DNA of 64,000 nucleotides from Actinomycetes bacterium. Lineage in GTDB: Bacteria > Actinomycetota > Acidimicrobiia > Acidimicrobiales > Ilumatobacteraceae. Shown here in pieces: positions 6,261 to 27,154 of the stretch (position 1 is the first letter of the stretch; the number at the start of each line of letters is the position of its first letter). The translations under genes were made by a program, and so were the position numbers. A model generated the notes under the pieces. That model saw only the letters and a list, made by a program, of their open reading frames with translations, ran no database searches and was not told where the DNA came from. Where the stretch lies: contig JAIOPC010000009.1 of assembly GCA_021414085.1 (NCBI GenBank), positions 62,001 to 126,000 on the forward strand, in the 5' to 3' direction.

Positions 6261-6989
6261 CTAGTCGAAGGTGTCGTAGTCGGCGTCGCCGGGCATCGAG
6301 AAGGCGACCACCTTGCCCTTTCCGTCAACTCGCACCTTGGGCAGGATGCACGGCGGAGTGCCGACGGCCCATGCCGCTTTCATCGCGTCTGCCACGGTTG
6401 CGTGCGGGACAAGGAAGCGCAGGTTGGCGATCGTTGGTGGCATGAGTCGCAGCTCGCGAGCCTCGTGGCGCGCGAGTGCGTCGGCCGGTCGCACCCACAT
6501 ACTCGCCACGGTTTCGTTGTCGTCGTGATGCGAGGTCTGCCCCGCGGGGTGGGCGGCGATGAAGAACCGGGTGTCGAATCGGCGCGCCGCTTCGCCCTTG
6601 GGCGTGATCCAGTGGCTCACCCACGGAAGTGCGTCGGTCGCCAAGCGCAATCCGTGATCGGCGGCGAGGGCGCGCATGTCGACGGTGCCGTCGTACACGG
6701 CGAGGCGATGTGCGAGCGCCGGGTGGCCATCGTGCACCATCTCGCCTTCGGCGTCGACGGCCAGCAGCACGCCGGCTTCCTCGTAGCACTCGCGGATAGC
6801 GGCGACGCGAAAGGCCTCGTCGCCTTCACCATCGGCCGCGTCGACCTTGCCGCCAGGGAACACGTACATGCCGCTCGCGAACACAGCGGCATTGGTGCGC
6901 TTGAGCACGAACACTTCTGGCCCGTCCGTCGTGTCGCGCAACAACATCACGGTTGCTGCGGGACGGATCGGCACCTCGGCATCGGACAT
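6261..6989 (-). CDS. NUDIX hydrolase
   Basis: A 242-residue protein. The ATG at 6989 was chosen because the longer upstream frame runs back into the oligoribonuclease gene. The Nudix box is split in the usual way: [14 protein letters not shown], a short gap, then [13 protein letters not shown], giving G-x5-E-x7-REUxEExGU in slightly extended form. The N-terminal [18 protein letters not shown] strand is typical of the NUDT19/CoA-like subgroup, and the C-terminal helical extension also fits that group. Such enzymes cleave nucleoside-diphosphate-linked substrates in the cytosol; the substrate here is not known. It is divergent from orn with only 24 bp between starts. Confidence 0.85.
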
Positions 6990-11112: not shown

Positions 11113-12398
11113 CGCGGCTTAATGACTGTGGCACCGCGCATGTATGGCAGCAGCACAGTGGGGATTGCGACCGAGCCATCGGCGAGCCGGTAGTTCTCGA
11201 GAATCGCCGCCCACACGCGCGGCACGGCCAACGCGGAACCATTCAACGTATTGGCGACGTGCGTGCCCTTCTCGCCCGTCGTGCGAAAGCGGATGTCGGC
11301 GCGGCGCGCCTGATAATCGCTGAACCAACTAACCGAGCTGACTTCCAACCACTTGTCGCAGCCGGGCGCGTAAACCTCGATGTCGAAGCTGCGGTGATGG
11401 CTCTGGCCGAGATCTCCGGTGCAGATTTCGATGATGCGGTAGGGCAGTTCGAGCCCACTGATGAGCTTCTCTGCTCGGTCGCGTAACTCGGTCAGCAGTG
11501 CGGGCGCTTGATCCGGAGTCGACACCGCAAGGATCTCGACCTTGTCGAACTCGTGCACGCGCAACATGCCGCGCGTATCGCGACCAGCGGAGCCGGCTTC
11601 GCGCCTGTAGCAGGGTGAGTACGCCATCATGCGGATCGGCAGCTGAGCGTCGTCGAGCACCTCGCCGGCGTACAGCGAGGTCAGTGGCACCTCAGCAGTG
11701 GGGATGCACCACAGATCGTCGCGCTCGATTGCATACGCGTCGTCGGCGAACTTGGGCAGCTGGCCTGTCGCGGTCAGCGTCGCGGTGGTGACGAGCGACG
11801 GCGGACGAATCTCCTCGAACGCATCGGCATTGGAATCGAGCGCGTACTGGCAGAGCGCACGCGACAGTGTCGCCCCGGCGCCACGCTGCATGTTGAACAT
11901 CGCGCCGCTGATCTTCGTGGCCCGTTCGCCGTCCAAGATGCCCAGCGCCGCCGCAGTTTCCCAGTGCGGCACTCGCTGGTGATCGGCAAACTCCGCCGGC
12001 AAGAACGGACCTTTGATGATCGGGTTGTCTTCGTCGCTGACACCATCGGGTGCATCGGGGTGCAGCACATTGGGAATGCGCAACATCAACTCGTGTAGTT
12101 CGCCCTGCACCACATCCAGCTCGTCGGCCAGCACCTTCTCCTGCTCGCCCAGCGAACGGCTCTGCGCCTGCAGTGCCTCGGCCCCCGCAGCATCGCCTTC
12201 GCGACGCTTGGAAGCCACCTGCTTGGAAACCTCGTTGACCTCGGCGCGCAACGCATCGCGCTTCGCCTGTATCGACCGCACGGAAACATCGGCCTCAATA
12301 GCACGATCGAGTTGCGAGAGAATCTCCGGCGCGTGCCGACGGGTAAGGCTGGCGCGCACGCCGTCGGGATCTGTGCGCAGGAGTCGGACGTCGATCAC
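11109..12398 (-). CDS. serS: Seryl-tRNA synthetase
   Basis: A 429-residue class II synthetase. The N-terminal coiled-coil tRNA arm (about residues 30-105, rich in Lys/Glu/Arg/Gln) is followed by the class II core with motif 2 (CYRREAGSAGRDTRGMLRVHEF) and motif 3 (GSALAVPRVWAAILENY). TAEVPLTS is the serine-binding TxE loop. Length and domain order are normal. It overlaps ctaG by 4 bp upstream and pdxH by 4 bp downstream, so translation of all three is probably coupled. Confidence 0.95.
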   Translation of the reverse strand: MIDVRLLRTDPDGVRASLTRRHAPEILSQLDRAIEADVSVRSIQAKRDALRAEVNEVSKQVASKRREGDAAGAEALQAQSRSLGEQEKVLADELDVVQGELHELMLRIPNVLHPDAPDGVSDEDNPIIKGPFLPAEFADHQRVPHWETAAALGILDGERATKISGAMFNMQRGAGATLSRALCQYALDSNADAFEEIRPPSLVTTATLTATGQLPKFADDAYAIERDDLWCIPTAEVPLTSLYAGEVLDDAQLPIRMMAYSPCYRREAGSAGRDTRGMLRVHEFDKVEILAVSTPDQAPALLTELRDRAEKLISGLELPYRIIEICTGDLGQSHHRSFDIEVYAPGCDKWLEVSSVSWFSDYQARRADIRFRTTGEKGTHVANTLNGSALAVPRVWAAILENYRLADGSVAIPTVLLPYMRGATVIKPR

Positions 12399-13234
12399 GA
12401 CGTCACGTTACCGACGCGGCGATAGGTGTTCTCCTCGCGCCAGCCCCTTGCGAAGCGGCGAAAGAACATGAAGATCACGATCGACCACAGGTACATGCCG
12501 CCAGCCAGCTTCATGATGGCACCAGCCAACTGCTGATCATTGGTGACGCTGAGCCCCCACACGCGCACCGGCTGATTGCCGTAGTGCGAGTAGACCGCAC
12601 CCTCGGCAAACGTCAGCCAAGCTGCCGGCACTGTGGGGACGACGCTCTGCAGGAACAGATAGATCATCTTGCCCGCGTAGCCCATGTGCAGTTCCTTGAA
12701 CGGGCCGACAACTGGCATCCACATCAGCACGGCCGAGAGCACGACCAACAGGTGCAAGGCATAGTGCAGCGCACCGTTGGTGGTGGATGCATTCACCACC
12801 CCTGGTATGTGCGTCACCATCACGATCACGTTGAACGCAATGCCGGCGATCACTGGACGGGCCGCAAAGCAAACCGCCCTGTACGCCCTGCCGTTACCGA
12901 CCAGCACCCGCAGCAGCCATTCAGGAGTCGCCAGCAACACAAGTGGTGGCATGAGGTAGCTGAGCATCATGTGTTGCAACATGTGCACGCTGTAGAGGTA
13001 CTCCTCGCCGATCTGGTGAATCGGCCACGTGCTTGCCGCGAACAGCAGCATCATCGCACCGCAGAAGCAGATGACGTTGCGACGGGTGACGACCGGGGTG
13101 CCACTCGCGACCGCACCGGGGCCAATCACCCGCACCATGTAGACGTACGCGCCGATCAGAAAGGCGACAAGAAGGTAGACCTCGACGTTTGCCTGGAAGC
13201 GCCACGGATCCGCGAACGGAACGGCGGCCAACAT
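12395..13234 (-). CDS. ctaG: CtaG-type cytochrome c oxidase assembly membrane protein
   Basis: A 279-residue protein with about seven predicted helices, of the caa3_CtaG family needed for formation of active caa3-type oxidase. Family motifs include HMLQHMMLSYLMPPLVLLATPEW and MVTHIPGVVN, with histidines likely to bind copper. Location directly after subunits I, III and IV supports the call. Overlap with serS is 4 bp and the gap to ctaF is 4 bp. Confidence 0.88.
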   Translation of the reverse strand: MLAAVPFADPWRFQANVEVYLLVAFLIGAYVYMVRVIGPGAVASGTPVVTRRNVICFCGAMMLLFAASTWPIHQIGEEYLYSVHMLQHMMLSYLMPPLVLLATPEWLLRVLVGNGRAYRAVCFAARPVIAGIAFNVIVMVTHIPGVVNASTTNGALHYALHLLVVLSAVLMWMPVVGPFKELHMGYAGKMIYLFLQSVVPTVPAAWLTFAEGAVYSHYGNQPVRVWGLSVTNDQQLAGAIMKLAGGMYLWSIVIFMFFRRFARGWREENTYRRVGNVTS

Positions 13235-13238
13235 CAGG

Positions 13239-13553
13239 TCACTTCACGAAGAACTGGAAGGTACACAGTGCGGCGGTGTACACGCCGAGCGCGAGGCCGA
13301 GCCCGATGTAGAACATCGCGCCGAAGAGCTTGCTGTCGTACTTCAGATGCATAAAGACGAGCAGGATGACGAAGAACTTGATCGTCATGAGGATCAACAG
13401 CAGCGGAGTGGCGAACGAACCGAAGTCGATCCAGTAGGTCGAGGTTTCGAGCGCGGTGAACAGCGCCAGCACCAGCGCGGTCCAAATGAAGTAGCTGTTG
13501 GTCGGGTGATCGTGTGCTTCGGCGTGTTCGGCGTGTTCGGCGTGTTCGCTCAT
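13239..13553 (-). CDS. ctaF: Cytochrome c oxidase subunit IV (caa3 type)
   Basis: A 104-residue protein with three membrane helices (YFIWTALVLALFTALETSTY, LLLILMTIKFFVILLVFMHL, LGLALGVYTAALCTFQFF) and an N-terminal His/Glu/Ala tandem (HAEHAEHAEAHDH). The MTIKFFVILLVFMHLKYD segment is characteristic of the prokaryotic cytochrome c oxidase subunit IV family. It lies 10 bp after ctaE. Confidence 0.88.
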   Translation of the reverse strand: MSEHAEHAEHAEAHDHPTNSYFIWTALVLALFTALETSTYWIDFGSFATPLLLILMTIKFFVILLVFMHLKYDSKLFGAMFYIGLGLALGVYTAALCTFQFFVK

Positions 13554-13563
13554 GGCAATTACC

Positions 13564-14160
13564 TCAGGCCGGGATCAGATAGACGAGGGTGAAGATGACA
13601 ACCCAGACGACGTCGACAAAGTGCCAGTACAGGCCGATCATCTCAACCGCTTCTGCTTTGTCACCCGTAATGCGCCCGCGAGAAATGATCGCCACCAGCG
13701 CCAACAGCATCATCACGCCGATGCTGACGTGCACGCCATGGAAGCCGGTGAGCGTGAAGAAGCTGCTGGAGAACAGGCTGGTCGTGAACCCGAGACCCTC
13801 CTTGTAGAAGGCGGTGAACTCGTAGACCTGGCCGCCAACGAACAACGAGCCAAGCAAGGCCGTCACCGTCAGCCACAGTTTCGTGTTGCGGTCGTCCTTC
13901 GCCTTGGCTGCGTTCACTGCCAACACCATTGTCAGAGAGCTCATCAGCAACACGAAACTGCTGACCGAAGTCAGCGGAATGTCGAACACCTGCGCCGGGC
14001 CGGGGCCGCCCTCATGACGACCGCGGTACAGCATGTAGGTGCTGATCAGCCCGCCGAACAGCAAGCACTCGCTGCCCAGGAACATCCACATCGCCAGCTT
14101 GTTGTTGCTGAGGCCAGTGGTCGTGCCGTGGCCCGGAGCGTGAATCGTCGTGTCAGCCAA
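13564..14160 (-). CDS. ctaE: Cytochrome c oxidase subunit III
   Basis: About 198 residues if started at the TTG at 14160, which overlaps the ctaD stop by 8 bp and lies about 10 bp after an AAGGAG. The frame is open further upstream but only antisense to nothing useful and inside ctaD. Canonical subunit III features are present: MWMFLGSECLLFGGL with the lipid-pocket Glu, LTGFHGVHVSIGV, and the final YWHFVDVVWVVIFTLVYL. It forms the non-catalytic core subunit next to CtaD. These intact residues contrast with the degenerate paralogue at 18544-19122. Confidence 0.9.
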   Translation of the reverse strand: MADTTIHAPGHGTTTGLSNNKLAMWMFLGSECLLFGGLISTYMLYRGRHEGGPGPAQVFDIPLTSVSSFVLLMSSLTMVLAVNAAKAKDDRNTKLWLTVTALLGSLFVGGQVYEFTAFYKEGLGFTTSLFSSSFFTLTGFHGVHVSIGVMMLLALVAIISRGRITGDKAEAVEMIGLYWHFVDVVWVVIFTLVYLIPA

Positions 14161-16147
14161 CGGAAGCCAACTCCTTAGTTGAGTCGCCGCTATCGGCGGG
14201 TGGGTCGTACTCGTCGTGGCCGGCAACCGACGGCTCAAGAACCCAACCGAAGGCGGCGAGCAACAAGATGACGGCACCGAAGACCGAGAGCATCAGATTG
14301 AAGATGACTCCGTAGGTGATGATCGGCAACGAGAACGCCAGCAGGATCGGCCAGTACGACGGCGACGGAAGATGCATGTGCTCGTCGGGGTGCGCATTCA
14401 GCTCGGCCTGAACCTCTTCGGCCGTCTTCACTTTTACGAGGCGGCTACCGCCCTCCGCATCGACCTCTTCGTACTTGCGGTGGAAGAACTCGTCGAGCGC
14501 ATGCACCGTCGGGATGGAATCGAAGTTGTGTTCCTTCGGCGGACTGGTGGTCAGCCATTCAAGCGTGCGCGCATCCCATGGGTCGAGCGGCGCCTTCTCG
14601 GTCTTGCGTGCCGTGCGGAACACGTTGATCACGAACAGCAGCACGCCAGTCGCGATGGTGAACGAGCCGACCGAGGCGACTCTGTTCCAGAATCCGAGAT
14701 TGAAGAACCCGTCGCCGGTGAGCTTGTCGGGCCAGACGACCATGCGCCGTGGCTGGCCCTGCATGCCGAGAATGTGCATCGGGCCAAACGTCAGGTTGAC
14801 ACCGATGAACATCAGCCAGAAGTTCCACGTGCCCAGTCGCTCGCTGAGAGTCTTGCCAAACATCTTCGGCCACCAGTAATAGAAGCCTGCGAACAGACCC
14901 ATCACGGCGCCACCGACAATCACGTAATGGAAGTGAGCGACGATGTGATACGTGTCGGTCTGCTGCGTGTCGGCCGGTGCCGCTGCGTGCGTCACGCCCG
15001 ACAACCCGCCGATGGTGAAGAGCACAATCGTGCCGATGGCGAAGTTCATCGCGGTTGTGAACCACAACTTGCCGCCCCACAGCGTGAGCGTCCAGTTACA
15101 GATCTTCACACCAGTCGGGATCGCGATCAGCATGGTCGAGACCGAGAACACCGCAACGCTCACCGGACCGAGACCGCTGGCGAACATGTGGTGCGCCCAC
15201 ACGCCCCAACCAACGAAGCCGATGGCAGCGCCGGAGAACACGACGAACTTGTAGCCGAACAGTGGCTTGCGGGCGAACGTCGGAATGACTTCCGAGATGA
15301 TGCCGAAGCTGGGCAAGATCAGGATGTACACCTCGGGATGTCCGAAGATCCAAAACAAGTGTTGCCACAACAATGGGTCGGCGCCCTGCTCGACATCGAA
15401 GAACGCCGCACCGAAGTTGCGTTGGAAGCTGAGCAAGAACAACGCCACAGTGATGACGGGGATCGCGAACAGCAACAGGAACTGCACGACGAGCTGCATC
15501 CAGGCGAACACAGGCAGGCGCATCAGCGTCATGCCGGGAGCACGCATGTTGATGACTGTCACGATCAGGTTGATGGCACCAATCAGCGACGCAATACCGG
15601 TGATCTGCAGGCCGAGCACCCAGAAGTCGACGCCGTGACTAGGCGAGAACAATGCGCTTGAGTTCGGCGAGTACATGAACCAACCGCCATCGGGAGCGCC
15701 ACCAAGGACCCACGACGAGTTCAAGAAGATGCCACCGAACAAGAAGAGCCAGAAGCCCAACGCGTTCATGCGGGGGAAAGCGACGTCGCGGGCACCGACC
15801 TGCAACGGCAAGAAGTAGTTGGCGAACGCTGCCGCCATTGGCATCACGAACAAGAACACCATGGTGGTGGCGTGCATCGTGAACATCTCGTTGTACAGAC
15901 CCGCGCTGAGCACGGTGTTATCGGGTGCAGCCAACTGCAACCGAATCAGCAGCGCCTCGCACCCGCCGAGCAGGAAGAAGAACATGGCGACGGCGCCGTA
16001 CATGATGCCGAGCTTCTTGTGGTCGACGGTGAAGACCCACGACTTCCAGCCAGTAGTAGCGAGCGGTCGGCGAAAGATGCCGAGCGCAGCACTGGGGGTC
16101 ACCAGTGAGTCGGACGGATCGCCGGAACGAAGTTCGAGGGTGGTCAT
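14153..16147 (-). CDS. ctaD: Cytochrome c oxidase subunit I
   Basis: A 664-residue heme-copper oxidase subunit I, the catalytic core that reduces O2 to water and pumps protons. All ligands are in place: H92 in MHATTMVFLF (low-spin heme), H270 and Y274 in GHPEVYILILPS (CuB and cross-linked Tyr), H319/H320 in VWAHHMF (CuB), and H405/H407 in AHFHYVIVGG (hemes). It is of the A-type family. The C-terminal soluble extension after DPWDARTLEW is typical for Actinobacteria. It lies 12 bp after ctaC. Confidence 0.97.
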   Translation of the reverse strand: MTTLELRSGDPSDSLVTPSAALGIFRRPLATTGWKSWVFTVDHKKLGIMYGAVAMFFFLLGGCEALLIRLQLAAPDNTVLSAGLYNEMFTMHATTMVFLFVMPMAAAFANYFLPLQVGARDVAFPRMNALGFWLFLFGGIFLNSSWVLGGAPDGGWFMYSPNSSALFSPSHGVDFWVLGLQITGIASLIGAINLIVTVINMRAPGMTLMRLPVFAWMQLVVQFLLLFAIPVITVALFLLSFQRNFGAAFFDVEQGADPLLWQHLFWIFGHPEVYILILPSFGIISEVIPTFARKPLFGYKFVVFSGAAIGFVGWGVWAHHMFASGLGPVSVAVFSVSTMLIAIPTGVKICNWTLTLWGGKLWFTTAMNFAIGTIVLFTIGGLSGVTHAAAPADTQQTDTYHIVAHFHYVIVGGAVMGLFAGFYYWWPKMFGKTLSERLGTWNFWLMFIGVNLTFGPMHILGMQGQPRRMVVWPDKLTGDGFFNLGFWNRVASVGSFTIATGVLLFVINVFRTARKTEKAPLDPWDARTLEWLTTSPPKEHNFDSIPTVHALDEFFHRKYEEVDAEGGSRLVKVKTAEEVQAELNAHPDEHMHLPSPSYWPILLAFSLPIITYGVIFNLMLSVFGAVILLLAAFGWVLEPSVAGHDEYDPPADSGDSTKELASVG

Positions 16148-16159
16148 CTCGTGTTTCCC

Positions 16160-17398
16160 TTATTTCCGCTCGAGCAGGAAGGCGATGAGCTGATCGATCT
16201 GGTCTTCGGTGAGGTTCAAGTTGGGCATCCCGCGGGTGAGGCCCCCGGTAGAAGCGACCTGGTCAGGGCTGGCGTAGTTCGGCTTCATCGCTGCTGGATC
16301 GCGCAACCAATCGCGCAACGTTGCTTCAGCGAAGCACACCGGCTTCGTCGCATCGGGCCCGCTGTTCATCCACACGCCTTGTAGGTACAAGCTGCCGAAT
16401 TCTTCGGGGGATGCGTTCCACAGCTGCTCGCGACACGCATCGGTCAGCAGATCGAACGTCCAGCCCGCAATCGCCGTGCGAGTCATCAGGTTGGTCAGGT
16501 TGGGTGCTGCACCGGCAACGACGTACAAGTCCGGCTCGGCCAGCACTGGCGTGCCATCGGCCGCCACGAGACCGTTCACCTGGTGGCACCGGCTGCACTG
16601 GTTGACAAACGTGCCCTCACCCGTGGCGGCCAGCGTGCCCGCTTCAGGCGCGACGTAAGCCGCGAGTTGATTAGTCACCCACGTCTGGAAGTCGGCAGTA
16701 CTGAGCGCGACCGCGGCCTGACGCATACGCGCATGGCTCAACCCGCAGAACTCGGTGCACTGGCCGGTGTAGATGCCCGGCTCGTCGGCTTCCATTCGCA
16801 GAGTTTGTAGGCGGCCAGGCACCGCATCGCGCTTGCCGTTCAGCGCTGGAATCCAGTAGCTGTGAATCACATCGCGACTCGTGATGCGCAAGAGCACCGG
16901 GGTGTCGGCTGGAATGACGAGCTCGCCACTTGTGACGATGGGTTGCGTGATCTCGACTCCTCCGCAGGTGCCGGAGTAGTCGTACTCCCACCACCATTGC
17001 TGGCCGGTCACGTTGATCACGCACTCGTTGGACTTGTCGTCGAGATCGAACACCGCTGCGACCGTCGGAATCGCGACACCGGCGAGAATGACCGCGGGAA
17101 TCACGGTGAGGGTTACTTCCAGCCAGGTCTTGCCGTGTGTTTGCTCGGGCATGTCTTGACCGCGGTCTTTGAACCGAATGATCGAATAGCCGATGACGGC
17201 AAACACGATGAGCCCGACAATGCCAGCCACGTAGAACAGCGGGCGCTGCACGTCGTCGATGGTGCGGGCGTTCGGACCCTTCGGCTGAAACGTGTCTTGC
17301 GGTGCGTCTTGCGCGCAGCCAGCGAACAAGACCGCCGCAGCAAATGCGGCAACGGCCAAGCGGCTCCGTCGTGAATTACTTGGTGTCAGAACGGTCAT
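16160..17398 (-). CDS. ctaC: Cytochrome c oxidase subunit II fused to a cytochrome c domain (caa3 type)
   Basis: About 412 residues from ATG 17398. The N-terminus has a lipoprotein-like signal (AAVLFAGCAQD), then two membrane helices, the GQQWWWEYDY strand, and the binuclear CuA site GQCTEFCGLSHARM. A mono-heme cytochrome c domain follows with CSRCH and a distal Met region near the C-terminus, ending NLTEDQIDQLIAFLLERK. Fusion of the electron-donor cytochrome to subunit II defines caa3 oxidases. It begins 2 bp after the stop of the preceding 377-residue membrane protein gene. Confidence 0.93.
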   Translation of the reverse strand: MTVLTPSNSRRSRLAVAAFAAAVLFAGCAQDAPQDTFQPKGPNARTIDDVQRPLFYVAGIVGLIVFAVIGYSIIRFKDRGQDMPEQTHGKTWLEVTLTVIPAVILAGVAIPTVAAVFDLDDKSNECVINVTGQQWWWEYDYSGTCGGVEITQPIVTSGELVIPADTPVLLRITSRDVIHSYWIPALNGKRDAVPGRLQTLRMEADEPGIYTGQCTEFCGLSHARMRQAAVALSTADFQTWVTNQLAAYVAPEAGTLAATGEGTFVNQCSRCHQVNGLVAADGTPVLAEPDLYVVAGAAPNLTNLMTRTAIAGWTFDLLTDACREQLWNASPEEFGSLYLQGVWMNSGPDATKPVCFAEATLRDWLRDPAAMKPNYASPDQVASTGGLTRGMPNLNLTEDQIDQLIAFLLERK

Positions 17399-17399
17399 G

Positions 17400-18533
17400 T
17401 CAGGGCACCACGATCTGGATGGTTGCGCCGTCAACACCAGGCACGATGAATTCGAGGGGGGTGCTGCTGGCGGCGTTGGTTTTGGGAATCTCGAACCCGA
17501 GGTAAGCGGACTTGCCAGGGTGAACAGCCGTCGTGCACGACACCGCTTCGGGTTGGTCGGGGAACGTGCCAAAGCGGCCGGTGAGGCGCTGCGCCTCGCC
17601 GCTGTCGTTGTGGAAGATGACACCGAGGCGCGCGCTGCGCGGCACGGTGAGCTCGTGATATTCGATACCCGAGTAGCCGTTGATGAGCGCCACGAGATCT
17701 CCATCTTCTTGCAGATAGATGTTGGCGACGACGCTGCTCTTCAGCGACACATCTTGCGACGCATGCTCGTCGACTTCTCCCTCGCCACCCTCCAGACACA
17801 GTGCCTTCTGGCTCGGGTCGTCGATGACGGGGTGCGGGTGAATCGTTCGTTGACCAGAGATGGCCGAGGCGACGCCGACGCCCATCAGCGCGACCGCGCT
17901 GATGGTGCAGATCGCGGCGACAGTTCCCTTGGGTGTCGTCCGACCGCCAGCGAGCAGGAAACCGCCGGTGACCACGAGGGCACCGATGACTACAAAAATC
18001 CAGCGCCCGGCATCGGGGTTGGCGGTCAGCAGCACTCGCGAGAACGCATACACGACCGCACCGGCGCCGATCGTCGCCAGGATCGGGAACTCCAGAGCGT
18101 TCAGCATGCGGCTGCGCACATTGGCGTTGTAGCGATGATCTGCGCTGGCCCGCTCGCTCCAGCCCTGCACCATCCACTCGACGATCGCGGCGAGCAACAC
18201 AACAACTGAGACCTTGAACACCACGGGCTTGCTCACGGCACCGACGATCAAGCCACCGATGCCGACAGCGGCGCCAAGCGGCCACATGCTGCGGCCAACC
18301 GGCGCCTGCGCCGCCGACGAAGTCTGCTCGACACCTTGTTGCATGCTCGGGGTGTTGCCGTCGCGCGTGAAGAAGTTGATACCGGCGAGGAAGGCAAAGA
18401 TGATGACAGCGGTGACGAGGCCGACGGTGCTCATCAGCCCAACAGCGCCGCCCTGCGACGCGGCGAAGACAACGGCGGCGACGACCGACAAAGTCGTGGC
18501 ACCCAAGAACATCTTCGATCCGGTGGTGAACAT
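17400..18533 (-). CDS. Multi-helix membrane protein with C-terminal cupredoxin-like domain, oxidase-associated
   Basis: A 377-residue protein with about seven predicted helices between residues 8 and 230 and an extracytoplasmic C-terminal domain of about 140 residues. That domain has a beta-rich pattern (VVANIYLQEDGDLVALINGY, ELTVPRSARLGVIFHN, KSAYLGFEIP, IQIVVP) suggestive of a cupredoxin fold, but I see no complete copper site. I do not recognise the full-length family. It sits between a degenerate subunit III-like gene and ctaC with 2-10 bp spacing, so it is part of the oxidase operon and may act as a partner of the degenerate subunit I. Confidence 0.6.
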   Translation of the reverse strand: MFTTGSKMFLGATTLSVVAAVVFAASQGGAVGLMSTVGLVTAVIIFAFLAGINFFTRDGNTPSMQQGVEQTSSAAQAPVGRSMWPLGAAVGIGGLIVGAVSKPVVFKVSVVVLLAAIVEWMVQGWSERASADHRYNANVRSRMLNALEFPILATIGAGAVVYAFSRVLLTANPDAGRWIFVVIGALVVTGGFLLAGGRTTPKGTVAAICTISAVALMGVGVASAISGQRTIHPHPVIDDPSQKALCLEGGEGEVDEHASQDVSLKSSVVANIYLQEDGDLVALINGYSGIEYHELTVPRSARLGVIFHNDSGEAQRLTGRFGTFPDQPEAVSCTTAVHPGKSAYLGFEIPKTNAASSTPLEFIVPGVDGATIQIVVP

Positions 18534-18543
18534 CAGTTCTCCG

Positions 18544-19122
18544 TTACTTCGTCACGTAGATCACGAACCACAACATCGCGAAGGCGAAGCTGAGGAAGTA
18601 CCAATACAGGGCGTGCGCAGTCACAACCTCGCGATCGGTGGTGCGACCACCGAGGTAGCGGAAGGCAGTGATGGCGCTGAACAGCGCTCCGGCAACCAGC
18701 AAGGCAACCATCGCGCCGGTGAGAGCGTAGAACATCGTGTTGAACGAGCCACCAACTGCCGGCACATGCATGCGTTCGTAGATGTTGACCTGCGCGTTGA
18801 TCATCGCCACGGCAAGCAGTGCAACCAGCCAGAGCGCGACACCGGCGTGCACTCGATCGCCGCGCTTCGCCGAGTACACAGCCCACTGAGCGAAGATCGC
18901 GATTGGCAACATCGCGCACAGCATCACGTTGGCGGGCACCATCGGAACGCTGACGCCTTCCGGCAGCCAGCGCCCGCTCGCCGACAGCGACTGGTCGCGT
19001 AGGCGCAGATACAGAGCGAACATGCCGCCGAACAGCGCGGCCAACGCCGCACAGGTGACGGCGGTGCCGACCAGCACTTGCCGGCGTGGCGCCGGGGCGG
19101 GGGCAGCGGGGAGTGCGTGCAT
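18544..19122 (-). CDS. Degenerate subunit III-like heme-copper oxidase protein
   Basis: A 192-residue protein with five or so predicted helices that follows the layout of oxidase subunit III: a first helix ending in FGGMFALYLRLRD and a final one, ALYWYFLSFAFAMLWFVIYV. Compared with the canonical CtaE encoded at 13564-14160, WHFVD has become WYFLS, GSECLL has become TCAALA, and FHGVHV is absent. The conserved acidic and histidine residues are therefore lost. Its stop is 10 bp from the 377-residue gene and its start overlaps the degenerate subunit I gene by one base. It probably forms a complex with that protein. Confidence 0.7.
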   Translation of the reverse strand: MHALPAAPAPAPRRQVLVGTAVTCAALAALFGGMFALYLRLRDQSLSASGRWLPEGVSVPMVPANVMLCAMLPIAIFAQWAVYSAKRGDRVHAGVALWLVALLAVAMINAQVNIYERMHVPAVGGSFNTMFYALTGAMVALLVAGALFSAITAFRYLGGRTTDREVVTAHALYWYFLSFAFAMLWFVIYVTK

Positions 19123-20768
19123 CAGCTACTGCTCCGTTCGGCGACGCGCAGGTCGAGCAACGGCTCGGCCGACGAAACGATATGTACGACCGGAAAGTTG
19201 TCGGCTGGCGCTGGCGACGCAGCCGCCCATTCCAACGTCTGGCCATTCCAGGGGTCAATCGCGGCGTTTGCTTCGCCGCGCAACGCCCGCACCGCGACGG
19301 CCACGAACGCCAGCACGGCAAGAGCCACCAGCCCCAACCCGACCGCGCTGAGCGTATTCCAGAGACTTGGGTTGCCGCCGTAGGCGAAGTTGACGACCGC
19401 GTTGGAGTTGGCGCTCAGCGCCGGGAACACCGCGCTCGGCTGATCGGCGAAACCAGCAACGAGGAGCGGCAACGAGGCCAGTTCGGCACCGAGGAAGGTG
19501 AGTACGGCCAACTCGAGCATCGGCCTGGTTGGCATTTCGCGCCCCCACCACTTGGGGCCCCAGTACACGACAGCACCCATGGCGGCGAGCACACCAGCGA
19601 AGACAACGGCGAGCCAGTTGCCTTCCTCAAAAGTGGTGCCCGCGAGCTCGGCATCGCCGACATGCAGCAACGCGCTGGCTGCGGCCGCCGACAAGGCAAG
19701 TAGTGCCGCAAGGAAAGCAAAGACAAGCGGCGATTGCAGCTTCGGTCGCGTCGCAAGATTCTTGGCAACAAGCGCGAACGCGACGAAGGCACCGAGCAGC
19801 GGCAAGCCGTGGACTAAGGCGAACGGCACCAAGTCGGCGAGCTTGTCGCCAAGGTTCAGCGCGGAGAAGGCCGGGCGCAGGGTGACCGGGGCCTGAACCA
19901 CCGTCGCCAACACAGCGATTCCGGCAAGGCCGATTGCGCCGAACAACACACCTCGCGGGCGCAAGCGCTGACCGGTGGCAGTAGCCACCGTCTCAGCGAA
20001 GAACCCGAACACCGGAATCACGAACAACAAGGTCGTTGGCTGGCTGAAACCGAAGCCGACCCAATCGTTGATCGCTTGGCTGCCGCTGAGCAGGTTGTCG
20101 GGCGACGGGTACCGATACGCAAGCCAGGAGAACAACAGATCACCGGCGACAACTGGTAGCGCGATGAGAAGTGCGAGCGACGCGATGAGCACCGACCACG
20201 AGAAGAAGGGGATGCGGCGCATGTTCATGCCCGGCGCACGAGTGGTGAGAACGCTGGTGGCAAGACACACGACGCCGGCAACGAGGCCGGCAATCACGAG
20301 CAGCGCCGACAAGTTGAACAGTTCGACGAAACGAGTGTTGCCACCGTTGGGGCCACCGTTGTTGATGATCGAGTAAATGGCCAGTGCTGCACCGACCAAC
20401 CACAACCAGAAACCGGCTGCGGCTACTCGCGGGAACGCGAGCGACCGAGCACCCAGTTGCAGCGGCACGACGGCCAAAGCGATACCGATCATCAGCGGCG
20501 CAAGACCGAGATAGGTGAAGCCGAAACGCTCGACAGCAAACAACTGTGAAAGCGCGTTGATCTCGAACAGCTCACTAGTTGCGGAAGTGCGTTCGACTCC
20601 GAGCAGCACGGCCACAACCGCGGCACCGAGGAACGCGAGCGCGCCACCAACGATGTAGAGGCGACCGATTCGCTTGTGGTCGGTGGTGGTCAGCCACTCA
20701 GCAACGCACGCGAGACCAGTCCCCGCGGATGGGGCGTTACTCGCGGTGGTGTCGATGGTGGTCGTCAT
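19122..20768 (-). CDS. Subunit I-like heme-copper oxidase paralogue lacking heme and copper ligands
   Basis: A 548-residue polytopic membrane protein clearly related to CtaD: TTTDHKRIGRLYIVGG at the start, VPLQLGARSLAFPRVAAAGFW, TTRAPGMNMRRIPFFSW and the C-terminal DPWNGQTLEWAAASP all align with the canonical subunit encoded at 14153-16147. Yet the helix II MHATTM site reads VERFGFTYLG, HPEVY reads SQPTTL, the HH pair of helix VII is VQAPVTL, and the HFHY site is absent (EEGNWLAVVF). No heme or CuB ligand set remains, so it cannot be a terminal oxidase. It opens the oxidase operon downstream of ctaB. A structural, assembly or electron-transfer role is inference. Confidence 0.8.
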   Translation of the reverse strand: MTTTIDTTASNAPSAGTGLACVAEWLTTTDHKRIGRLYIVGGALAFLGAAVVAVLLGVERTSATSELFEINALSQLFAVERFGFTYLGLAPLMIGIALAVVPLQLGARSLAFPRVAAAGFWLWLVGAALAIYSIINNGGPNGGNTRFVELFNLSALLVIAGLVAGVVCLATSVLTTRAPGMNMRRIPFFSWSVLIASLALLIALPVVAGDLLFSWLAYRYPSPDNLLSGSQAINDWVGFGFSQPTTLLFVIPVFGFFAETVATATGQRLRPRGVLFGAIGLAGIAVLATVVQAPVTLRPAFSALNLGDKLADLVPFALVHGLPLLGAFVAFALVAKNLATRPKLQSPLVFAFLAALLALSAAAASALLHVGDAELAGTTFEEGNWLAVVFAGVLAAMGAVVYWGPKWWGREMPTRPMLELAVLTFLGAELASLPLLVAGFADQPSAVFPALSANSNAVVNFAYGGNPSLWNTLSAVGLGLVALAVLAFVAVAVRALRGEANAAIDPWNGQTLEWAAASPAPADNFPVVHIVSSAEPLLDLRVAERSSS

Positions 20769-20863: not shown

Positions 20864-21802
20864 TCAGCGGATCAGCACGTCGGCGGTCATCGCGCCGAAC
20901 AAGAGGGTGACGTAGGTGATGCTGTACCCAAAAACGCGCATTGAGCGTGCCGCGGTCGGATTGCGCCCAAGATCGATTGTCCCCCACAGGAAAAGTGCCC
21001 CCAGGACAACCGCGGCGATGCCGTACAGCATGCCGAGCTCGGCAACCGGCCAAAGGGCGAGGGTGCCGGCCACCATCAACGCCGTGTACCGCACCATTTT
21101 GGTCACGGTTACCTGCAAAGAAGCCACGGCCGGCAACATCGGCACGTTGGCCGCGCGGTAGTCGTCGGCGTAACGAATAGCCAACGCCCAGAAGTGTGGT
21201 GGGGTCCACAGAAACATGACGACGAACAACAAGATGGGCGACCAGGTCACGTTGTTTTGAACCGCTGCCCAGCCGACGAGCACCGGAACAGCGCCAGCCG
21301 CGCCACCAATGACGATGTTCTGAGTGCTCGTACGTTTCAGCCACAGCGTGTACACGAACACGTAGAACAGCGTCGCCGAGAGCGCCAAGACTGCTGCGAG
21401 AAGGTTCGCCCAGCGCCACAGGACCGCGAACGCAATGGCCTCCAGGGTCAGTGCGAAGACCAGCGCTTCCCGAGGTTGCACCAATCCGGTCACAAGCGGC
21501 CGGCCTTGTGTGCGTGGCATCAGCGCATCGATGTCGCGGTCGACCACCATGTTGATGGCGTTGGCCCCTCCAGCGGCGAGCGTGCCGCCGAGCAGGGTGA
21601 CCAGCACCAGCGACGTGCGCGGCCACTCGCCAGCGGCCAGCACCATCGTGGGCACGGTGGTGATCAGCAACAGTTCAATGATGCGCGGCTTGGTGAGCGC
21701 GATGAAACCACCGACGCGAGACGTGGGCGTTCGGCGCGAGCCGTGCGCGACCCCACCCGGCGCCAAACGGGAGGGAACGAGTGGGCGCGATCCGACAGCC
21801 AT
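20864..21802 (-). CDS. ctaB: Heme O synthase (protoheme IX farnesyltransferase)
   Basis: A 312-residue UbiA-family prenyltransferase. The two Asp-rich sites are visible: [22 protein letters not shown] and the loop [30 protein letters not shown] is the conserved first helix. It farnesylates heme B, the first step to heme A for the oxidase encoded downstream. Nine helices are predicted. It begins at ATG 21802, divergent from clpS with about 32 bp between starts, and is followed after 95 bp by the degenerate subunit I gene. Confidence 0.95.
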
Positions 21803-24281: not shown

Positions 24282-25474
<1,193 letters not shown>

Positions 25475-25478
<4 letters not shown>

Positions 25479-26104
25479 GACGTATAGATCGCCGGTTCCT
25501 GCCTTGGAATTACAGGTCGTATGGAGTTTTCGCTAGCGACAGCCGATTCGAGCACCGTCGCCAGGCGGCGTAGGGCACGATGTTGCGTGACGCGCACCCA
25601 GTTTGGGGATCGTCCCATGACTTCCGCGACGTGCAACACATCGAGCTCACCCAACACGCGCAACATCAATAGTTCAGCGTGTTCGTCCGGAAGCGTCGCC
25701 GTCATCAGGTCGACAGCGTCTTGTCCGGAGAGCCTTTCGATCACTTCCCGGGCCGTGTCGTTGGGGCCAACAAGAGCGTGGAAGAACTCGCTTTCGGTGA
25801 CGGCTACCGGTCGACGACCCGCGGAGCGGCGGTAATCGGCCGCTCGTCGACGGGCAATCGTGAAAGCCAACGCCCTCAGGCCTGTCAGATCGCCTTCGAA
25901 ACCGCTCATGCCGCGCGCCAAGGCCAACCAGACATCGCCGGCCAAGTCGTCGGCCGCGCCTGGCTCGAGACCACGCAGGAAGCGCAACAATCGGGGCTGC
26001 AGGTCAATGAAGAGCTGCTCGACCGCCCATTCCTCGCCGAGCTTGGCCGCGCCAAGGACGTCGGGAAATGACGCCGGATCGAGAGGGCCGCGGACAGAGG
26101 ACAT
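25475..26104 (-). CDS. ECF-type RNA polymerase sigma factor
   Basis: About 209 residues from ATG 26104. Sigma region 2 is visible in EEWAVEQLFIDLQPRLLRFLR and ADDLAGDVWLALARGM, and region 4 in LPDEHAELLMLRVLGELDVLHVAEVMGRSPNWVRVTQHRALRRL, a helix-turn-helix binding the -35 box. The longer open frame upstream is out of line with the family and overlaps the promoter region of the divergent acetyltransferase, so it was not used. It is coupled to a membrane protein gene that probably encodes its regulator. Confidence 0.85.
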
Positions 26105-26197
26105 GCGAACTGCTATCGGCCGCGGAACGTCAATGATCAAGCCCGAATCTTGAAATTGAGGCTGGCCAGAGACGGCCCGGTGCCTATCGTCGCCGCC

Positions 26198-27154
26198 ATG
26201 AGTGTGACCTATCGAATGGCCGAGCGAGCCGACCTCCCGGCGCTGTGCGCTCTGATCAACGCGGCGCACCGCGCCGACGGCACCCCGCAGGTGCTGTCGC
26301 TGGAGGAGCTGACCGAAGACCTCGACGACTCGGGGGATCTGACCTCCGATGTTCGGCTGGGGCTGCTCGGAAACGAGCTCGTTGGCTACGTTCGGGCGCT
26401 GCACTTTCCGAGCGACGAGTTGTGGGAGCGCTGCTACCTCGTCGGCACGGTGCATCCGGAACATCGAGGCAACGGCATCGGCCGAACGTTGATGGCGTGG
26501 GGCGTCGAGTGCGGAACCGCCTTGTTACGTTCATCCACCAACGAGTTTCCGAAGTACCTGCGCGTTGAGCTGCACGAGAGCAGTGTCGACGCGCGTCACC
26601 TGTTCGAGCGGCTTGGGTTCCGCGATGTGCGAAAGTTCGAAGAGTTGCTGCGCCCGCTCACGAAGTTGCCACCTGTGCAGGAGCCAGTCGGCGTCCGCAT
26701 CGTGGCGTGGCCCGGCGATCGCGACGAGGAGATCCGCGACGTCAAGAACAAGGCGTTCGCTGATCATTGGGGTTCGACACCAACTCCAGCGAACAAATGG
26801 AAGACATGGGTTCACGGCTTCGGCAGCTTCCCCGAGCAGTCGTTCATCGCAGTCGACGAGGCGAATCACGTCGTGGCGTACTCGTTGAATCACCGTTACC
26901 CCGCCGACGACGAGATCCTTGGCCGCCGCGACGGGTGGATCATGAACCTCGGCACGCTGCCCGAATGGCGTGGGCGAGGAGTCGCATCGGCCCTCATCGT
27001 TCGTTCGCTGCATGCATTCGCCGCGGCCGGGCTGACGCACGCGTCCATCGGCGTCGACAGCGACAGCCTCACGGGCGCCGTTCGTCTGTACAAGTCGCTC
27101 GGTTTCACCACCAACCGAAGCCACACCACGCTAGAGATCGAACTGGAGCCGTGA
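26198..27154 (+). CDS. Tandem GNAT acetyltransferase (mycothiol synthase-like layout)
   Basis: A 318-residue protein made of two GNAT domains. Acetyl-CoA-binding loops are seen twice: VHPEHRGNGIGRTLM in the first half and LPEWRGRGVASALIVRSL in the second. The arrangement resembles MshD (mycothiol synthase), the final step of mycothiol synthesis, but many actinobacterial tandem GNATs share it. It lies 14 bp upstream of the aldehyde dehydrogenase gene. I therefore keep the general name. Confidence 0.8.
   Translation: MSVTYRMAERADLPALCALINAAHRADGTPQVLSLEELTEDLDDSGDLTSDVRLGLLGNELVGYVRALHFPSDELWERCYLVGTVHPEHRGNGIGRTLMAWGVECGTALLRSSTNEFPKYLRVELHESSVDARHLFERLGFRDVRKFEELLRPLTKLPPVQEPVGVRIVAWPGDRDEEIRDVKNKAFADHWGSTPTPANKWKTWVHGFGSFPEQSFIAVDEANHVVAYSLNHRYPADDEILGRRDGWIMNLGTLPEWRGRGVASALIVRSLHAFAAAGLTHASIGVDSDSLTGAVRLYKSLGFTTNRSHTTLEIELEP

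What the first reader, a model, noticed from the sequence alone, without database searches (positions are those of the whole stretch)
17400..20768. Oxidase-like module with a ligand-free subunit I paralogue ahead of the caa3 operon
Three genes precede ctaC: a 548-residue protein homologous to CtaD, a 192-residue protein homologous to subunit III, and a 377-residue membrane protein with a cupredoxin-like end. Aligning the first by eye to the canonical CtaD of this same operon, the low-spin heme site (MHATTM), the CuB/Tyr site (HPEVY), the HH pair and the HFHY site are all replaced, while the scaffold motifs (PLQLGAR-AFPR, RAPGM, the C-terminal DPW-TLEW) are kept. The subunit III-like protein has lost its conserved Glu, His and Asp. 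Retention of long intact frames with tight spacing argues for selection, so this may be a non-catalytic heme-copper-like complex: an assembly platform, supercomplex partner, quinone or electron-transfer unit, or a proton/ion channel.
Basis: partly seen in the sequence, partly recalled or inferred. Interest (0 to 1): 0.78.

Follow-up and report, generated by a model that had tools for sequence, protein, structure and literature searches.

The report
Oxidase-like "dead twin" beside caa3
Next to a normal oxygen-consuming enzyme, these bacteria keep a lookalike copy that has lost its metal-binding sites but is still preserved by natural selection, and relatives show the metals being lost in stages.

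Summary
Genes at 20768-17400 (minus strand) encode a complete COX1 fold (AlphaFold pLDDT 91.5; TM 0.81 to C. glutamicum CtaD) lacking all six His ligands and the CuB Tyr, a subunit-III relative lacking its conserved Glu/His/Asp, and a CtaF(subunit IV)-like membrane protein ending in a cupredoxin fold without copper ligands. The reading needs correction. (1) The copy does not descend from the neighbouring caa3 CtaD; it is one clade (support 100) among actinobacterial aa3-type CtaDs. (2) It is an order-wide module: 34 of 37 family genomes and 17 of 24 other genomes of the order have it, and dN/dS of 0.05-0.14 argues against decay. (3) Deep relatives are not empty: of 102 scored modules 24 keep the low-spin haem His pair plus a type-1 copper cupredoxin, 10 the haem pair alone, none a CuB triad. 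The oldest state was thus most simply an oxygen-inert copper/haem unit, later stripped. Of 35 order genomes without a memX hit, 33 have neither module nor caa3-type CtaD. Most likely role here: a cofactor-free accessory half of the caa3 complex, comparable to haem-free CydB of cytochrome bd. Physical contact was not tested.

The parts
19122..20768 (-). cox1L: subunit-I paralogue of the aa3-type CtaD lineage, 548 aa, COX1 fold, no haem or CuB ligands at the known positions
   Evidence: PF00115 E 1.8e-31; ligand columns E Q L Q A N L; model pLDDT 91.5, pTM 0.92; TM 0.81 to 7qhm_D; trees
18544..19122 (-). cox3L: subunit-III (CtaE-like) paralogue, 192 aa, conserved E/H/H/H/D replaced by L/M/L/Y/S
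   Evidence: PF00510 E 4e-7, above its cut-off; NF050119 aa3_CtaE_Actin E 5e-12, below its cut-off; column counts
17400..18533 (-). memX: CtaF/Cyt_c_ox_IV-like N-terminal membrane part, further TM helices, C-terminal cupredoxin fold without copper ligands, two Cys (246, 333) invariant in 58 aligned family members
   Evidence: memX model hits the frame beside aa3-type ctaD at model positions about 3-122 in 23 of 30 loci; orthologue L060 has PF12270 E 7e-4, below the curated cut-off; Foldseek Cupredoxin_1 4hcf; Cys
20864..21802 (-). ctaB, haem O synthase-like (UbiA family), first gene of the conserved cluster
   Evidence: PF01040 E 1.6e-62; order
16160..17398 (-). ctaC, caa3 subunit II with CuA domain and cytochrome c domain
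   Evidence: PF00116 E 1e-22, PF00034 E 8e-7; start at 17398
14153..16147 (-). ctaD, canonical catalytic caa3 subunit I, all ligands present, with Cyt_c_ox_IV-like C-terminal extension
   Evidence: PF00115 E 1.7e-152 and PF12270 E 1.1e-7; HHYHHHH
13564..14160 (-). ctaE, canonical caa3 subunit III (start taken as TTG at 14160)
   Evidence: PF00510 E 7e-19; start chosen by script
13239..13553 (-). COX4_pro small subunit
   Evidence: PF03626 E 4e-8
12395..13234 (-). ctaG, caa3 assembly factor
   Evidence: PF09678 E 1e-39

Best explanation
The three genes encode a cofactor-free pseudo-oxidase made of subunit I-, III- and IV-like proteins. It descends from an actinobacterial aa3-type oxidase (shown by the trees). 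An ancestor gave up oxygen chemistry by losing the CuB site, but kept a bis-histidine haem and a cupredoxin domain fused to its CtaF-like subunit (read from ligand columns in deep relatives). In the window's family (Ilumatobacteraceae by the titles of matching records) the haem, a3 and copper ligands have gone, while fold, gene order and purifying selection remain (shown). It most likely works as a stoichiometric accessory half of the caa3 oxidase whose genes follow it: a membrane-embedded partner that stabilises the catalytic CtaC-CtaD-CtaE unit, its docking, or its biogenesis (inferred). The logic would be that of CydB, the haem-free fold-mate of CydA in cytochrome bd (analogy). Electron transfer in the ancestral form (type-1 copper to haem, then to caa3) is inferred from ligands alone.
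For: Intact COX1 fold: pLDDT 91.5, pTM 0.92; the three best PDB hits by E-value are actinobacterial aa3 subunits I, TM 0.80-0.81. Purifying selection: dN/dS 0.052-0.141 for cox1L over 8 pairs, against 0.009-0.076 for ctaD in the 5 pairs where it could be computed. Conservation: 34 of 37 family genomes and 17 of 24 other order genomes have cox1L (hand count; G060 by gene position only); memX in 264 of 397 order genomes. Synteny: 45 of 80 named loci show the nine-gene order complete; memX is present in 76 of 80, the other four loci showing no gene after cox3L. Tie to caa3: of 35 order genomes without a memX hit, 34 have no caa3-type CtaD. Deep relatives: 24 of 102 modules with bis-His haem plus type-1 copper motif, 10 with the haem pair only. 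Single origin: the 50 cox1L rows form one clade, support 100. CydB precedent: passages of PMC8951039.
Against: No complex was predicted or measured; contact with caa3 rests on operon position and co-occurrence. Outside the order, caa3-like operons were seen without the module (18 of 20 loci, within the stretch fetched), so it is not generally required. One genome, G059 (L065), keeps open cox1L and cox3L frames although no caa3-type CtaD was found in it; its memX is broken, which can be read as decay after partner loss or as an assembly artefact. cox1L evolves faster than ctaD, which suits a peripheral part as well as a structural one.
Confidence: 0.5

Rival explanations
1. Biogenesis platform: the module acts during assembly of caa3 (for example holding CtaC/CtaE or receiving haem from CtaB) and is not part of the finished enzyme.
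For: Lies directly after ctaB in the cluster; ctaG is in the same cluster; no redox cofactor needed.
Against: The window protein has lost every known haem ligand, so it cannot hold haem at the old sites; CtaG, CtaB and CtaA exist already, and caa3-like operons elsewhere in the phylum were seen without the module.
Confidence: 0.2
2. Binding site for a non-metal cofactor or lipid/quinone in the former haem cavity, making the module a quinone-stabilised or quinone-sensing membrane unit.
For: CuB histidines 270 and 319 are replaced mostly by Gln (47 of 67 and 51 of 67 ligand-free rows; both in 38), so the site stays polar rather than drifting freely; CydB of E. coli holds a quinone at the haem position (PMC8951039 passages).
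Against: No quinone motif is known to me for this position and no cavity analysis was possible; mycobacterial CydB fills the space with aromatic side chains instead (same passages).
Confidence: 0.13
3. Proton or ion channel derived from the oxidase scaffold.
For: The helical scaffold with conserved polar positions remains.
Against: The D-channel Asp column is S, A or T in 58 of 67 ligand-free rows; the K-channel Lys column is V, L, A or T in 62 of 67.
Confidence: 0.05
4. Decaying duplicate without function.
For: Residues vary at positions 92, 405 and 407; memX is broken in G059.
Against: Low dN/dS, open frames and conserved gene order; memX still found in 264 of 397 order genomes.
Confidence: 0.02
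5. Redox-active unit with new ligands not at the old positions.
For: The deep relatives are very probably redox active by their ligands.
Against: In 67 ligand-free rows the only His conserved at 75% or more is H31 of the DHK motif, which the operon's CtaD shares, and no Cys is; the two invariant Cys of memX suit a disulfide.
Confidence: 0.06

Closest known systems
Actinobacterial aa3 oxidase CtaD/CtaE/CtaF (bcc-aa3 supercomplex, e.g. PDB 7qhm, 6adq)
   Same: Fold of subunit I, subunit types I + III + IV, ctaF-like frame beside ctaD, closest branches in the tree
   Different: All redox ligands lost; no own subunit II with CuA; cupredoxin fused to the CtaF-like part; sits inside a caa3 operon
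caa3-type cytochrome c oxidase (the neighbouring ctaC-ctaD-ctaE-cox4-ctaG)
   Same: Same operon and same superfamily
   Different: 27% identity; the module is not a tandem copy of it
CydB of cytochrome bd
   Same: Works-like analogy: a fold-mate of the catalytic subunit without metal cofactors inside one enzyme (PMC8951039 passages)
   Different: Unrelated family; CydB is a proven subunit, the module's association is inferred
Membrane-anchored cupredoxin encoded after ctaG in caa3-like operons of other actinobacterial orders and classes
   Same: Homologous to the second half of holo memX (model positions about 130-333) incl. cupredoxin
   Different: Separate protein of about 220-260 aa, copper-binding family match in the three tested (ligands not scored), no CtaF-like part, no cox1L/cox3L beside it in the stretch fetched

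Membership tests
Haem-copper oxidase A-type catalytic subunit I | COX1 fold | tested here: met
Haem-copper oxidase A-type catalytic subunit I | Six haem/CuB histidines and cross-linked Tyr | tested here: not met
   E Q L Q A N L in the window; no row with the CuB triad among 102 cox1L rows, some with alignment gaps at the HH columns
Haem-copper oxidase A-type catalytic subunit I | D- and K-channel residues | tested here: not met
   Ser and Ala in the window protein
Cytochrome c oxidase subunit III (CtaE) | Profile match | tested here: met
   PF00510 E 4e-7, above its cut-off
Cytochrome c oxidase subunit III (CtaE) | Conserved Glu/His/His/His/Asp | tested here: not met
   L, M, L, Y, S
CtaF / Cyt_c_ox_IV (PF12270) | Profile match of the memX N-terminus | tested here: inconclusive
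   No Pfam match for the window protein; orthologue L060 E 7e-4, below cut-off; memX model hits the frame beside aa3-type ctaD at 30-71 bits in 23 of 30 loci (that these frames are CtaF is recalled, not tested)
Type-1 copper cupredoxin | Cupredoxin fold | tested here: met
   E 9e-5 to 4hcf; residues 271-377 at block pLDDT 84-95
Type-1 copper cupredoxin | His-Cys-His-Met ligands | tested here: not met
   Absent in the window protein; present in deep relatives
CydB-like cofactor-free partner subunit (works-like) | Stable heterodimer with the catalytic subunit | not testable with these tools
   only single-chain prediction was on hand

The most novel reading that the evidence does not exclude
An undescribed branch of the haem-copper oxidase superfamily that no longer handles oxygen: it first became a type-1-copper/haem electron-transfer module serving the caa3 oxidase beside it, and then, in the window's family, was stripped of every cofactor while remaining a conserved half of that enzyme. 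A living series of intermediates survives in one bacterial order.
Probability: 0.4. Interest if true: 0.85.

Novelty: new variant of a known kind. Interest (0 to 1): 0.72.

Why it matters
Haem-copper oxidase subunit I is a strongly constrained membrane protein, and its metal sites are taken as its reason to exist. A conserved, selected version without them, with relatives standing at successive stages of loss, would let one ask what the scaffold does apart from catalysis, how an oxidase becomes an electron-transfer or structural unit, and whether some caa3 oxidases are built as a live half plus a dead half. It also warns that a COX1 hit in genome annotation does not always mean a terminal oxidase: PF00115 calls the window protein well above its cut-off (109.9 against 34.8 bits).

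Tried and rejected
Origin from the neighbouring CtaD was rejected by two trees. Decay was disfavoured by dN/dS and distribution. Other ligands were looked for only as conserved His or Cys columns, and none was found besides H31. A holo-type copy outside the order was sought with alignment A7 in 246 genomes of the phylum: 132 had a match; the 30 loci handed out (one per genome, among the best; 24 of them outside the order) all had canonical ligands. The other hits were not scored, so a rare outside copy is not excluded. The co-loss of copper and haem ligands could not be tested statistically: only 3 changes of each state on the 50-row tree. Structure of a complex, cavity and ion-path analysis could not be run. 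Ten paper searches gave no paper on such a module in their listings. Of PMC8239418, PMC9145763 and PMC8951039 I saw passages; of all others only listings and abstract starts.

Limits of the counts. The state table is not a random sample: I chose near relatives and the best hits to the holo model. One of 103 rows was dropped, a fragment of a canonical ctaD in L228; three rows labelled 'noMemX' (L231, L232, L245) were counted as type-1 copper on the evidence, where their memX scored below the table's threshold. The type-1 call is a sequence pattern, not a measurement. 'Canonical' rows were defined by having the full ligand pattern, so 110 of 110 is not a finding. Two modules contradict the simple series: L221 and L228 have the type-1 pattern but no haem His pair. 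Four rows carry one stray His at a CuB column. The 35 genomes checked for caa3 are those without a match that searches listed by name; 113 and 148 further genomes without a match were not listed and not checked. dN/dS comes from Biopython's experimental codon module (YN00, NG86 as fallback); ctaD and ctaE were missing from some pairs.
Full report
What is there. On the minus strand nine genes run in one direction with gaps of about -8 to 95 nt: ctaB, cox1L, cox3L, memX, ctaC, ctaD, ctaE, cox4, ctaG (ctaE start taken as TTG 14160). The genome has two COX1 matches in all, this one and the caa3 ctaD. A CtaA and a cytochrome b match lie elsewhere in it.

Ligands. Aligned with the operon's CtaD, the seven site columns (haem a His92, CuB His270, Tyr274, CuB His319 and His320, a3 His405, haem a His407) read E Q L Q A N L. 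The D-channel Asp column is Ser and the K-channel Lys column Ala; the Arg pair near the haem propionates (role recalled) aligns to S and A in a gappy stretch. The AlphaFold model is nevertheless a confident complete COX1 fold. By E-value its nearest solved structures are subunit I of the C. glutamicum and mycobacterial supercomplexes (TM 0.77-0.81), with E. coli bo3 close behind. cox3L keeps the W of the YW motif but none of E/H/H/H/D. memX combines a CtaF-like N-terminus, more helices and a cupredoxin fold without copper ligands.

Distribution. With cox1L as query, 59 of 61 genomes (own included) had a COX1 match. By hand count over, cox1L itself is in 34 of 37 genomes of the family (missing: G005 and G034 without any match, G017 with only the canonical gene on a short contig) and in 17 of 24 of other families of the order (G060 by gene position only; G037 shows memX at a contig end). 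memX was found in 264 of 397 order genomes at E 1e-20 and in 128 of 296 class genomes at E 1e-8, where hits outside the order are weak and partial. Eighty named loci were fetched; many titles read Ilumatobacteraceae, Acidimicrobiaceae or only Actinomycetota, some look mislabelled, and they include the isolates Ilumatobacter nonamiensis and Desertimonas flava. Gene order is kept.

Selection. For eight pairs of relatives dN/dS of cox1L is 0.052-0.141, cox3L 0.035-0.193, memX 0.063-0.261; ctaD in 5 pairs 0.009-0.076, ctaE in 4 pairs 0.032-0.201. Several dS values exceed 1, so distant pairs are rough; the close pairs L036/L039 and L041/L042 (dS 0.2-0.9) give 0.035-0.069 for the three genes. The module is constrained; its subunit I is less so than the catalytic one.

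Origin. In two trees cox1L is one clade (FastTree support 1.0, 67 rows, the window protein twice; support 100, 50 rows, ligand columns left out). It groups with 17 canonical aa3-type CtaDs (support 98), with three further canonical rows next outside, while 17 caa3 CtaDs form their own clade (support 100). The exact sister is unresolved (35). In 23 of the 30 canonical aa3-type loci the neighbouring frame matches the memX N-terminus, which fits joint descent of the trio from an aa3 gene cluster.

Stages of loss. Of 102 cox1L rows, 34 keep both haem-a histidines; 10 of these also keep the a3 His. 24 of the 34 have a memX with a His-Cys-His-Met type-1 copper pattern, 10 have none. Of the 68 without the pair, 65 have no such pattern, 2 have it (L221, L228), and in 1 no memX was seen. 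No row has a CuB triad. On the 50-row tree this needs at least 3 changes for haem, 3 for copper and 5 for a3. The deep branches (L108/L222-type, L076-L079-type, L073/L226) have haem pair and copper, so the common ancestor most simply had both and no CuB. The window family stands at the stripped end. Whether its ligand-free cupredoxin fold was kept throughout or regained is open, because the sampled lineages between have none.

What the stripped form keeps. Among 67 ligand-free rows the conserved polar positions are mostly fold motifs shared with CtaD. Two former CuB histidines are Gln in 47 and 51 of 67, both in 38. This places these columns at the 79th and 84th percentile of conservation in the protein and hints at a kept polar site; its role is unknown.

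Tie to caa3. Thirty-five order genomes without a memX hit were checked with the window's CtaD: 34 have no caa3-type CtaD (best identity 49% or less; G034 has no match at all). Of those 34, one, G059, nevertheless has cox1L; the thirty-fifth, G060, has a caa3-type CtaD and a cox1L cut by contig ends. In G059 memX carries an early stop and then runs out. In other orders and classes 18 of 20 fetched loci show caa3-like genes without the module in that stretch; of the other two, L108 is in the order and has the module, L111 is too short. The simplest reading is that the module joined a caa3 operon once and has stayed with it.

Mechanism. Shown: fold (predicted), ligand loss, origin, selection, synteny. 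Inferred: physical association with caa3 and a structural or assembly-supporting role. The nearest precedent for the principle is CydB, whose fold equals that of CydA but which carries no metal cofactor, with a quinone or aromatic side chains in the haem position (PMC8951039, passages). For the deep relatives, electron transfer between type-1 copper and haem is the natural reading, unproven.

Known or new. Ten searches of the open PMC library listed no report of such a module (calls named under Tried and rejected); subscription papers and preprints were not searchable. It cannot be filed as a haem-copper oxidase enzyme, since the defining ligands were tested and absent; it is a member of the superfamily by fold and descent.

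Noticed in passing
L093-L112 (e.g. L100:7290-7940, L110:7449-8132): In many other actinobacterial genomes a separate 220-260 aa membrane protein with a cupredoxin domain follows ctaG in the caa3-like operon; it is homologous to the second half of memX.
   Followed up: partly
L079:4555-5301, L088:5025-5795: A TlpA/ResA-like thioredoxin frame lies between memX and ctaC in some deep relatives (family call from reading the motif, not from a search).
   Followed up: no
L065 (G059), 6419-6853: memX broken by an early stop, with ABC-transporter-like genes (by eye) where ctaC-ctaD would follow; no caa3-type CtaD in that genome: possible decay after partner loss, or an assembly artefact.
   Followed up: partly
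L221, L228: Two modules keep the type-1 copper pattern although the haem-a histidine pair of cox1L is gone, against the usual order of loss.
   Followed up: no
window 24282-25478 and 25475-26464: A gene with a long Gly/Thr and Gly/Asn repeat tail directly after what reads like a sigma-factor gene; looks like a sigma/anti-sigma pair (by eye).
   Followed up: no
family genomes G000, G003, G025, G035, G036 against G029 and e.g. G044, G057, G072: Of six family genomes tested, five have only a weaker, apparently split cytochrome b match (about 136-141 bits); G029 and several other order genomes with an aa3-type CtaD also have a stronger full-length QcrB-like match (above 200 bits).
   Followed up: no
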